Part shown: positions 21,401-41,800 of the stretch, piece by piece
Layout: each line of letters begins with the position of its first letter
Numbering within the stretch: position 1 is the stretch's first letter
DNA from: Mimachlamys varia
Lineage: Eukaryota; Mollusca; Bivalvia; Pectinida; Pectinidae
Reading direction: 5' to 3'
Assembly: GCA_947623455.1 (NCBI GenBank)
Contig: OX392530.1
Location: 1,463,501 to 1,527,500, forward strand
Length of the DNA: 64,000 nucleotides
The notes under the pieces: model-generated
What the model was told of the DNA's origin: nothing
Database searches by the model: none
What the model saw: the letters and a program-made list of their open reading frames with translations, nothing else
Made by a program: the position numbers and the translations under genes

Positions 21401-22398
21401 TTTCATATTGATAATTGGATCTTGGCTGGAAATTTATTTTTAGAACAATTTGCATATATTCAACTCAAGTAAATACTATTACTTGTTAGATTATAGTGAG
21501 TTGACCACTTTGTAATTTACAGGGACAGTGGTAAATATTATTACTTGTTAGATTACAGTGAGTTAACCACTTTGTAATTTACAGGGACAGTGGTGGGCAG
21601 CAGAAAGGATTGACCAGGACCAGTGATAAGAACTCTCCGAAGTACAAAAAAAGCGTTGCCAGGATGGAGCCATACCCACAGGAAGTCATTTTTTCCTTGC
21701 AGAAAATGACCTTGAAAAAGGAAGAATGCAACACGAAACATTGTAACTGTTCTACGAATCACAGTGATACAGAAAACCGAAACAAATACAACTATGCAAA
21801 CATCTCAGGATCTCCCCGTCGTTTAATTCGAGAGGCCAGGCTCAAAATACACCACTCAGAGAAAGACAGAAAGCATATAATAAGGTCGGCTAGACTCAAA
21901 CTCATTAAGAAGGAAAGAAAGAGTGATCCAACTGGCTTAAACGTTATCAAGCTTCCTAAATCGGGCAGTAATTCTTCAGATAATTCTGTATTTGGATCAG
22001 GTACAAAAGCTGTTCTTACTGATTTTTCGAGCATGTGCATCTCTTCTAAAAAACCGACGGAAGGAAAAAATTCTATTGCATCATTTAATGTGGATCATCC
22101 ACAAAATGTGTATGGCGGTAGGAAACATTCTCGTGACGATGAGTCGAAGAGTTGTTTTCCAGATTCTTCCTGTAGTCCGAAAGCCAAGACAGCACGCCAT
22201 TCAAAGACACGATCTGCCCCCGGTAGAGCAGTCGAGTCGGTGGTCAGTAAGACTAGTCAAGATCAGGTGTTGGAACGATCGTGTTCACAGGAAGCAAGGC
22301 TGGATGACTTGACTGTGAATGAATTAGCGGGCTATTTCGAAGATTTTGTTTACATCCCTAAAAAGATGTCGAGTATGGCTGAAATGATGTATACATAG
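18345..22398 (+). CDS. OSER1: Oxidative stress responsive serine-rich protein 1
   Basis: Predicted coding exons: 18345-18430, 20182-20247, 21585-22398; all GT-AG and in phase, 321 residues (human 292). The N-terminus [20 protein letters not shown] followed by RRLRVESE parallels the family's ESLQTAFKKLRV. The middle is Ser-rich and basic, with a twice-occurring R-x-x-R-x-ARLK pattern ([24 protein letters not shown]) and a Cys cluster ECNTKHCNC comparable with the family's CTCIGKECQC. The C-terminus [14 protein letters not shown] then [15 protein letters not shown] is the family signature, nearly identical to vertebrates. OSER1 is a poorly understood, stress-induced, probably nuclear protein, reported as a FOXO target. 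It is divergent from MTDH. The last intron carries a duplicated 3' splice site. Confidence 0.92.
18690..19700 (-). repeat. TCAAGGTCAT-family element, minus orientation
   Basis: Five or more degenerate units of roughly 160-200 bp, each with TTCAAGGTCA, GGGTCAAATAT, AGGCCCAGGGT and ATATTTGGCC. It ends with CAGATGAGCGTTGAGGCCCA, the inverse of the GGGCCTTAACGGTCATCTG left end seen at 25001. It fills much of OSER1 intron 1. Confidence 0.75.
19690..20150. repeat. 26-bp tandem repeat in OSER1 intron 1
   Basis: About 17 imperfect copies of ATAACATTGAGGTTCATACA plus CTGTAT, ending just before the 3' splice site of coding exon 2. Confidence 0.88.
20182..20247 (+). CDS. OSER1: OSER1 coding exon 2
   Basis: Between TGCTTTTTCAG and GTAAGTTC. 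Encodes [20 protein letters not shown] and WLR; 66 bp, in phase on both sides. Confidence 0.85.
20885..21180. mobile_element. Dispersed repeat (GGAGGTGGGA...ACCTCCCACATGG)
   Basis: Contains GAGGTGGGAGGCACCTGT, ATCATGGGTGGTGGGG, TCCCACATGGTTAAATCT and ACAGCCCT. The same blocks recur at 39868-40030. This copy is interrupted by the 110-bp hAT-like element at 20967-21076. Confidence 0.65.
20967..21076. mobile_element. hAT-like MITE with 8-bp target-site duplication
   Basis: Ends CAGGGTTTGCGTTG and CAGCGCAAACCCTG are inverted repeats (one mismatch in 14). Both sides are flanked by CAGGTGCT (20959-20966 and 21077-21084). CAG-starting termini with 8-bp duplications are the hAT pattern. At 110 bp it cannot encode a transposase. 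The open frame at 20962-21162 crosses it by chance. Confidence 0.85.
21470..21593 (+). repeat. 62-bp tandem duplication of OSER1 3' splice site
   Basis: Copies 21470-21531 and 21532-21593 differ at only a few bases. Both hold the T-rich tract, TTTGTAATTTACAG and the first exon bases GGACAGTGG. Use of the first acceptor (exon from 21523) meets an in-frame TAA within the second copy. The second (exon from 21585) continues the long reading frame, so it is the functional one. Confidence 0.95.
21585..22398 (+). CDS. OSER1: OSER1 coding exon 3 (most of the protein)
   Basis: Starts [20 protein letters not shown] and ends [19 protein letters not shown]; 271 codons including the split one. The frame is open upstream of the internal Met at 21610, as expected for an internal splice site. 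Confidence 0.93.
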
Positions 22399-38800: not shown

Positions 38801-41800
38801 ACTTACCCAGTGACCTTGCCAGAAGGGCATGTTCCCTACACCAAACTTACCAAGTGACCTTGCCAGAAGGGCATGTTCCCTACACCAAACTTACCAAATG
38901 ACCTTGCCAGAAGGGCATGTTCCCTACACCAAACTTACCAAGTGACCTTGCCAGAAGGGCATGTACCCTACACCAAACTTACCAAGTGACCTTGCCAGAA
39001 GGGCTATTCCCTACACCAAACTTACCAAGTGACCTTGCCAGAAGGGCATGTTCCCTACACCAAACTTACCGAGTGACCTTGCCAGAAGGGCATGTTCCCT
39101 ACACCAAACTTACCAAGTGACCTTGCCAGAAGGGCATGTTCCCTATACCAAACTTACCGAGTGACCTTGCCAGAAGGGCATGTTCCCTACACCAAACTTA
39201 CCAAGTGACCTTGCCAGAAGGGCATGTTCCCTACACCAAACTTACCGAGTGACCTTGCCAGAAGGGCATGTTCCCTACACCAAACTTACCAAGTGACCTT
39301 GCCAGAAGGGCATGTTCCCTTGTCTGACCTCCGGTCTCAAAGCCAGTCTCAAACTCGCCTCGTGTAGCATTCACCACCAGGATACCAACATCGGCCTGGG
39401 CAGTGCCTTAAAAAAAAACATCAGAAATACATTAAATGACTTTAAAAGCATGTTTTGTACAATGGTCCATGTATGCATTGACTATACACTTATCTGCTGT
39501 TTCCTACAAATATGATGTTATTATCTGCATAAGCAGTTGCTTTTGTGTTGGGAAATTCCTTTGGTCAATCTACAGAAAGCAAAGTAGAATTTTTATGTAA
39601 ACAGAACGTTGACCCAGAAACATCTGATGGCTATTCCAGTAAAAAATCTACCTAACCACAGGACTCCAGAATGAATAATTGCTTCTATCTGTGGCGGGGT
39701 TTCTTCAATGTTCTTAGGACTTTTGGTTAAAAAAGTATTTTATTAACAATTATGTACAATACAAGATTCAATATATACATTTTGATATAATGGGATTTGG
39801 CAACAAGAGTTCACTCTTATATTAAGCTTTCTCCCAAGGACTACATGTATTCCATAATTAATTATAAGGAGGAGGTGGGAATCACCTGTACTTGTATATC
39901 ATGGGTGACAGGGTTAAAACTACATCTGCCTAACATTCCTTATATTAAGTCACTTTCAATATTTGATGGATGTTGAGGTCTCTGGAAAAGTGCCTTCCGC
40001 ACCTCCCACATGGTTAATTCTGGGACAGCCCTTAACTGTTACTTTTATGCAAAATTAGAAAAATAAATCACAAGGGTGCTACTCCATAACATTACATATA
40101 GTCCTGGGGTTGGAAAGATATTATACTGGAATAGATAGCCCACACTTTTCTTGTTTTTCTTTTGAGTAATTAACACATTTGATGCCTGATGAAGCACATG
40201 TAACCAGGACAACAGTTTTAGTACCTGTTATCATATTGGGGATAAAGTCTTTATGTCCAGGAGCGTCTAACAAAGTTACTGCTTTCTTCGGAGTTTCAAA
40301 TTTCGTCTGAGCAATATCCATGGTAACACCACGAGACCTGGAGAATATCAAATAAAACACAAATACACTTCTAAAACTCTCAAATTAAAGACCATCTTTA
40401 TCAGGACCCTCACATGAATGGAAAGAGATCTAGGACTTGCATGAACAAGGCTTATATTTAATGCATTGCAAGTTTTCAAATAAATTAGGTGGTCGGGTGG
40501 TGCAGTTGATGGCACACTTGCTTTTCACCAAGGCGACCGGGGTTCAATTCCTGCCTGTGAAAAGGTGTCCATTTATCTGCCCGACTATGTGGGTTTTCTC
40601 CGGTACTCCGGTTTCCTCCCACAATAAGACCCTTCACGCTAACATTTGGGTCAACAAGAGTGATTGATATAAGTTGGATAACTTGTTTCATAACTGTTGT
40701 AAAATAAATAAAGTTTATATATATATAATTCAAATAAACACTAAAACATTTGCTTATGCTAAATTGGATTCACATATTGGATAGTTGTGACACCACATTC
40801 CAAAGGATCGACAAGTGAGGCCGAACGGGGGTAATTTTTGTGCGATTTATAACCCTCACTCTCAGAACAAACATGAGCTGTTGCTATTGAAATCCCATTA
40901 AAATTGCATGTACCGGGGTATATAATTTTTATTATGATACAACTCGTTAATGTCATGTTAACTCACCAATCAGAATGTAAAAGTCTCATTATGGTGTATA
41001 AACATCAACAAATCAATTCATAATACAAGAAACGTTCACTAGATTTATCTCTGTTTCCCCCACTTTGTCCTCATAGTGACCACACCCAGGCCATGAATAA
41101 TTTGAATCAAGTGAGCTAAAGATGACCTACCTTTCTTCCTCTGTCTCGTCAAGTACCCAGGCGAACGCGAATGAGCCCTTGCCAACCTTCTTGGACTCCT
41201 GTTCATACTTGTGCATGGCTTTTTTGTTGACCATACCAAGTTGGAACAGTAGATGGCCCATCAGCGTGCTCTTCCCAGCATCTACGTGACCTGTGGAGGT
41301 ATCATTTTTGCATGGTTATTGAAACACTGAAAAAATCACAAAACATGGGAGGCAGTTATATGGACAGGCCCAGGTTTCATCAACATTCCTTAACTTAAGG
41401 AAATTCCTTAACTTAAAAATCTCCATTGGAAAGCATTACAGAATTTAAGGAGAAAATCCTTAGTTAAGGAACTTTCCTTAAATTCTGTAATGCTTTCCTA
41501 TGGGGATTTTTAAGTTAAGGAATTTCCTTAAGTTAAGGAACGTTGATGAAACCGGGGCCTGGGCAGACAACACATCAACTGTTTCTCTCCAAACAAGATA
41601 ACACTAGAACAACCGTTGTCTTTGGAGAGTTTGCTGATCAATTTAACATCTTTCACACAACTACAGGTTCATACAACAGCTAGTACCGATATACCGTGAT
41701 AAATCCGATAAATTTGGTCTATAAAAGATCTTAGAAGGATCTTGGGTGTGCACCATCAAATGGTCTTTGTCAGATCTACTGAAGAAGATCTTTTACCTTG

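What the first reader, a model, noticed from the sequence alone, without database searches (positions are those of the whole stretch)
21470..39406. Unifying pattern: splice junctions as founders of tandem repeats
Four independent tandem duplications in two genes each span an exon-intron boundary (three donors, one acceptor), from 2 to about 50 copies, while other arrays nearby (19-bp arrays at 10568 and 36185) show no such link. Recurrence within one gene suggests a process rather than chance, such as slippage or R-loop-associated re-replication at transcribed junctions, or tolerance because the true donor stays intact. Tandem duplication of splice-site-bearing sequence is also a known model of intron gain.
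Basis: inference. Interest (0 to 1): 0.9.

Follow-up and report, generated by a model that had tools for sequence, protein, structure and literature searches.

The report
Splice-site minisatellites in scallop genes
In a scallop-like genome, four short stretches of DNA that straddle the edge of an exon have been copied in tandem, from 2 to about 50 times, apparently without spoiling the gene; the same thing has been reported in amphioxus, where such repeats are called mirages.

Summary
The window is from a scallop-like bivalve (HBS1L 92% identical to Mizuhopecten yessoensis). Four tandem arrays span exon-intron junctions: HBS1L donors of exons 10 (44 bp x14.7), 12 (44 bp x3.5) and 14 (37 bp x51), and the OSER1 exon 3 acceptor (62 bp x2). 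With the exon-attached sites, HBS1L reads as 729 codons and OSER1 as 321; all 38 decoy HBS1L donors tested and the upstream OSER1 acceptor give early stops.

The unifying claim is partly supported. Counted as founding events, 4 exceed an expectation of 0.5-1.0 (P 0.013 to 0.00075), but post hoc and from one window. R-loop bias gets no support.

The kind is known: amphioxus mirages, and human repeats at exon-intron boundaries. Most likely these are ordinary slippage duplications, tolerated because the exon-attached copy stays intact. New here: a mollusc and many copies.

The parts
38677..39320 (-). 44-bp tandem array spanning the HBS1L exon 10 donor; 14 units with GTAAGT (the exon's own included) plus a 29-base end
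39290..39406 (-). HBS1L exon 10; its last 31 bases are in the first array unit and its donor is the one that keeps the frame
31655..33535 (-). 37-bp tandem array spanning the HBS1L exon 14 donor, 51 units, with 36-base hybrid units every 5 to 8 units
33504..33607 (-). HBS1L exon 14; its last 30 bases are in the first array unit
35697..35848 (-). about 44-bp array, 3.5 copies, spanning the HBS1L exon 12 donor (10 exon bases in the unit); last copy has GT changed to CT
35839..36012 (-). HBS1L exon 12
21469..21594 (+). 62-bp duplication (2 copies, 59 of 62 identical) spanning the OSER1 exon 3 acceptor
21585..22398 (+). OSER1 exon 3 (last coding exon)
28120..57500 (-). HBS1L coding span, 17 coding exons, ORF of 729 codons
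18345..22398 (+). OSER1 coding span, 3 coding exons, ORF of 321 codons

Best explanation
These are mirage-type minisatellites. A short stretch covering the end of an exon and the start of the intron (or, in OSER1, the end of the intron and the start of the exon) was duplicated in tandem by an ordinary replication-slippage or microhomology event. It survived because the exon-attached copy keeps the full exon and a working splice site, while the extra copies lie inside the intron. Later slippage and unequal exchange expanded three of the four, and in the 37-bp array also copied in intron sequence from beyond its far end. Splicing uses the exon-attached site. Shown here: array anatomy, intact ORFs with the exon-attached sites, early stops with the decoys tested. 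Inferred: the duplication mechanism and actual splice choice. Any bias of founding events towards junctions is unproven.
For: Unit boundaries and copies. HBS1L exons joined at the exon-attached sites give an ORF of 729 codons from start to stop; 13 of its 17 exons, given as a 656-aa query, are 92% identical over the whole query to scallop P0001, and the four scallop-like proteins read continue across these junctions without insert. 38 of 38 decoy GT donors tested (13 + 23 + 2) give a stop before the normal one, as does the upstream OSER1 acceptor. Exon 10 decoys have U1 duplex energies of -8.6 to -9.8 against -8.6 for the real site. The 37-bp and OSER1 arrays end on whole units, with 2 bases (AT, GT) shared at the breakpoints (read). 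Eight hybrid units carry a 14-base block that is also the intron flank beyond the array (9 copies in all). [quoted passage not shown]
Against: Founding events fall on junctions more often than uniform placement predicts (4 against 0.49-0.97), which tolerance alone does not explain. Two arrays (exons 10 and 12) end on partial units of 29 and about 25 bases, which a single clean tandem duplication does not give; a later deletion or templated insertion must be assumed. No RNA data for this species were seen, so use of the exon-attached site is inferred from reading frame and orthologous proteins. Five GTACGA donors of the exon 14 array were not tested for their effect.
Confidence: 0.72

Rival explanations
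1. A process directed at junctions: something about transcribed splice junctions (stalled forks, bound snRNPs, R-loops) raises the rate of local tandem duplication, so junctions found arrays more often than other intronic sites.
For: Founder counts 4 against 0.97 (P 0.009) or 0.49 (P 0.00075), and in HBS1L alone 3 against 0.52 (P 0.010); amphioxus shows the same in several unrelated genes.
Against: Post hoc test in a single window; junctions are less often in arrays than random intronic positions; G-skew, the simplest R-loop sign, is not highest in junction arrays.
Confidence: 0.2
2. Anchor effect: arrays are founded everywhere alike, but those that include an exon end stay recognisable longer because the exon copy is held by selection and can reset neighbours by gene conversion, so junction arrays are over-counted.
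For: In the exon 10 array 5 of the 13 whole copies beyond the exon's own equal the exon unit exactly.
Against: The 37-bp array shows no steady gradient of likeness towards the exon, and some arrays without a junction are as uniform (for example 97% matches at 31098-31283).
Confidence: 0.2
3. Selected function: decoy donors regulate HBS1L output by diverting some transcripts into frames with early stops (nonsense-mediated decay), or hold U1.
For: 13 decoys at exon 10 pair with U1 as well as the real site; all 38 tested decoys give early stops.
Against: 22 of 51 donors in the 37-bp array have lost GT and 5 more are weakened; the last exon 12 copy has CT; no conservation data.
Confidence: 0.05

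Closest known systems
Mirages: minisatellite-like duplications of exon-intron boundaries in amphioxus (Adh3, globins BflGb6 and BflGb9, TnC, PGBD5)
   Same: Tandem units span a boundary, either 5' or 3'; many but not all copies keep AG/GT; the genes are reported to splice normally; units of 10-72 bp in Adh3 (PMC3087553 and PMC3902484, passages read)
   Different: Here a bivalve; up to 51 units and a higher-order repeat; globin units are 150-160 bp and PGBD5 units 60 and 108 bp; no RNA or polymorphism data here
Internal tandem repeats at exon-intron boundaries of human genes in segmental duplications
   Same: Minisatellite-sized units at exon-intron boundaries (PMC2812944, passages read)
   Different: There variable between recent paralogues and able to form new introns; here no paralogues were compared and there is no sign of a new intron
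[quoted passage not shown] potato RdRp, ATP2A1)
   Same: Tandem duplication of splice-signal-bearing sequence (PMC4974935, passages read)
   Different: There a duplicate yields a new intron; here the copies stay inside the old intron

Membership tests
Mirages | Tandem repeat unit spans an exon-intron boundary of a real gene | tested here: met
   4 of 4 arrays; exon 12 with only 10 exon bases
Mirages | Many copies retain splice signals | tested here: met
   Counts include the real site. Exon 10: 14 GTAAGT in 14 whole units; exon 14: 29 of 51 keep GT (24 GTAAGA, 5 GTACGA); exon 12: 3 of 4; OSER1: 2 of 2 AG
Mirages | Normal splicing is kept despite the copies | tested here: inconclusive
   Intact ORFs and orthologous proteins agree but no RNA of this species was seen
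Mirages | Length polymorphism, germline or somatic | not testable with these tools
   One assembly only
Intron gain by tandem duplication | A new intron arises from the duplicate | tested here: not met
   The complete HBS1L and OSER1 ORFs need no intron within the repeats beyond the old one
Junction-directed duplication process | Founding rate at junctions above that of random intronic positions | tested here: inconclusive
   By founders above, by positions not above; one window, post hoc

The most novel reading that the evidence does not exclude
Scallops, like amphioxus, have a duplication process that preferentially starts at exon-intron junctions, so that mirage minisatellites are a recurrent feature of at least two distant animal phyla and a standing supply of duplicated splice sites.
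Probability: 0.18. Interest if true: 0.7.

Novelty: new member of a known kind. Interest (0 to 1): 0.4.

Why it matters
If the pattern holds genome-wide, mirages are not a peculiarity of amphioxus. Either way the locus is a natural version of the duplicated-splice-site experiment: 14 near-identical donors in a row, of which only the first preserves the protein, and 51 units in a second array of the same gene. It could show how the spliceosome picks the exon-attached site when exon context is copied as well, and how arrays with decoy sites are tolerated.

Tried and rejected
R-loop idea: sense-strand GC skew does not set junction arrays apart (four junction and four other arrays). Exon-as-founder gradient: no steady decline of likeness to the exon with distance in the 37-bp or 44-bp array. 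Further cryptic junction duplications: besides the four, the best of the other 48 junctions scored 17 of 24, which 23.5% of controls reach. Structured RNA: no Rfam match at gathering score. Pfam gave nothing for the last OSER1 exon, the 494-aa alternative exon, two fragments of the MTDH-like gene or the HBS1L exon 6 region alone, nor for OSER1 again; it gave GTP_EFTU and HBS1_N for the joined HBS1L protein.

Limits of the counts. The 28 arrays are my merging of 48 TRF rows: four rows were dropped (two G runs, two units of 8-10 bases), the rest merged; one period (547-1004) was set at 45 by hand. In one search the wholly exonic 21-bp array was left out, leaving 17 intragenic arrays. The MTDH-like model keeps 4 stops in its best frame and its fifth exon has no GT donor where I ended it, so some of its 16 junctions are approximate. 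The P values come from 5,000 and from 20,000 placements.

Literature: eight paper searches were answered. Listed of found: 9 of 9; 11 of 11; 5 of 2,945; 3 of 3; 15 of 21; 12 of 188; 15 of 2,251; 7 of 7. No title or abstract start listed reports mirages in a mollusc, but several lists are cut short, subscription papers are mostly not held, and the original amphioxus Adh paper is not held.

Full report
What the window is. The minus-strand gene from about 57.5 kb to 28.1 kb is HBS1L: 13 of its 17 exons, joined, are 92% identical over the whole 656-aa query to HBS1-like protein of Mizuhopecten yessoensis and 86% to that of Pecten maximus, match a solved Hbs1l (5lzw chain jj) and carry GTP_EFTU and HBS1_N domains. 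The plus-strand gene at 18.3-22.4 kb is OSER1, 83% identical to the M. yessoensis protein (the query lacked exon 2). A third gene on the minus strand, 8.4-16.6 kb, matches a Pecten maximus protein at 48%; I call it MTDH-like from recall, the source names it otherwise. The host is therefore a scallop or close relative, by inference; the species was not established.

Gene models. tblastn of scallop proteins onto the window and inspection of GT/AG give 17 coding exons for HBS1L, 3 for OSER1 and 9 for the MTDH-like gene: 52 coding junctions. HBS1L reads from start to stop in 729 codons and OSER1 in 321. The MTDH-like model is imperfect, with 4 stops.

The four arrays. Exon 10 donor: 14 units of 44 bases (one of 43), each 31 exon and 13 intron bases, 0-2 changes from the exon unit, then a final 29-base piece without donor. 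Exon 14 donor: 51 units of about 37 bases; 8 of them are 36-base hybrids beginning with a 14-base block that is also the intron sequence just beyond the far end of the array, so a later duplication took in the array's end and its flank; spacings of 147, 184, 258 and 295 between the blocks show a higher-order repeat. Exon 12 donor: about 3.5 copies, whose unit holds only 10 exon bases. OSER1 exon 3 acceptor: two 62-base copies, 59 identical. In the two arrays that end on whole units (exon 14, OSER1) the breakpoints share two bases (read).

What the copies would do. With the exon-attached donors the HBS1L frame is intact. For each of the 38 other donors tested (13 at exon 10, 23 at exon 14 with GTAAGAT, 2 at exon 12) the predicted message stops early; the five GTACGA copies at exon 14 were not tested. 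Using the upstream OSER1 acceptor gives a stop after 68 codons. Copies at exon 10 pair with U1 as well as the real site or slightly better (-8.6 to -9.8 against -8.6 kcal/mol); at exon 14, 24 of 51 (the real one included) have the real site's sequence, 5 are weaker and 22 have lost GT. So the exon-attached site should be the one that makes protein; how it is chosen was not tested.

Is it more than chance? Two ways of counting give different answers. Founders: after collapsing each array to one unit and dropping it at random where it would not break an exon, the 28 arrays of the window should give 0.98 junction-spanning founders; 4 were seen (P 0.013); for the 16 with period 25-80 the expectation is 0.52 (P 0.0012). 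For the 17 arrays inside the three genes the expectation is 0.97 (P 0.009), for the 14 with period under 100 it is 0.49 (P 0.00075); for HBS1L alone 3 were seen against 0.52 (9 arrays, P 0.010) or 0.24 (7 arrays with period under 100, P 0.0006). Positions: 4 of 52 junctions have a copy of at least 22 of 24 bases within 1,500 bases, against 15.2% of 2,000 random intronic positions; at 18 of 24 it is 4 of 52 against 21.3%; 19.4% of intronic bases lie in arrays. The first is the fairer test of founding, yet it was made after the pattern was seen. The excess is suggestive, not established.

Mechanism. The simplest account is slippage or microhomology-mediated tandem duplication, which can start anywhere; those that cover a junction survive because the copy attached to the exon keeps exon and site. 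This fits what is seen: donor copies lie downstream of the exon in the intron, the extra acceptor copy lies upstream, and the exon-attached copy is in each case the one that keeps the frame. Tolerance alone does not raise the founder rate above the null used here, so if the excess is real, either junctions are duplicated more often or junction arrays stay visible longer. R-loops get no support from GC skew.

What is known. Tandem duplications of exon-intron boundaries were named mirages in amphioxus Adh3; they are reported also in globin genes, TnC and PGBD5, at 5' and 3' boundaries, with many copies keeping AG/GT and without disturbing splicing, and have been proposed as a route to intron gain (PMC3087553 and PMC3902484, passages read). 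In human segmental duplications, minisatellite-type repeats at exon-intron boundaries were catalogued, with 27 intron modifications (PMC2812944, passages read). Intron gain by tandem duplication has worked cases (PMC4974935, passages read).

Verdict. Real, well-formed and ordinary in kind: mirage-type minisatellites in a mollusc, with many copies. The process claim needs the genome-wide count.

Noticed in passing
51159-52643 (-): A 494-aa open exon between HBS1L exons 5 and 6 ending in its own stop; its C-terminus weakly matches 'Isoform 2 of HBS1-like protein' (9g8m chain E, E 0.001). This looks like the alternative last exon of the short, SKI7-like isoform (recalled). A 29-bp x2.7 repeat (52675-52751) lies just upstream.
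   Followed up: partly
31655-33535 (-): Higher-order repeat: eight 36-base hybrid units carry a 14-base block shared with the intron flank beyond the array, a record of stepwise growth.
   Followed up: partly
36180-38022: 19-bp array of about 97 copies in an HBS1L intron with sense-strand GC skew of 0.96, the highest of eight arrays compared, yet not at a junction.
   Followed up: partly
30534-30605: 34-bp x2 repeat ending about 8 bases from the HBS1L exon 15 acceptor; it reaches the region before the acceptor but does not span the junction.
   Followed up: no
12536-12685 (-): 21-bp repeat inside an exon of the MTDH-like gene, coding for a repeated 7-residue motif.
   Followed up: no
41370-41560: An inverted repeat seen by eye, like a small transposon, between HBS1L exons 7 and 8.
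   Followed up: no
21523-21592 (+): The OSER1 duplication puts an AG before and a GT after an 8-base exon piece, a ready-made micro-exon; no evidence of use.
   Followed up: no
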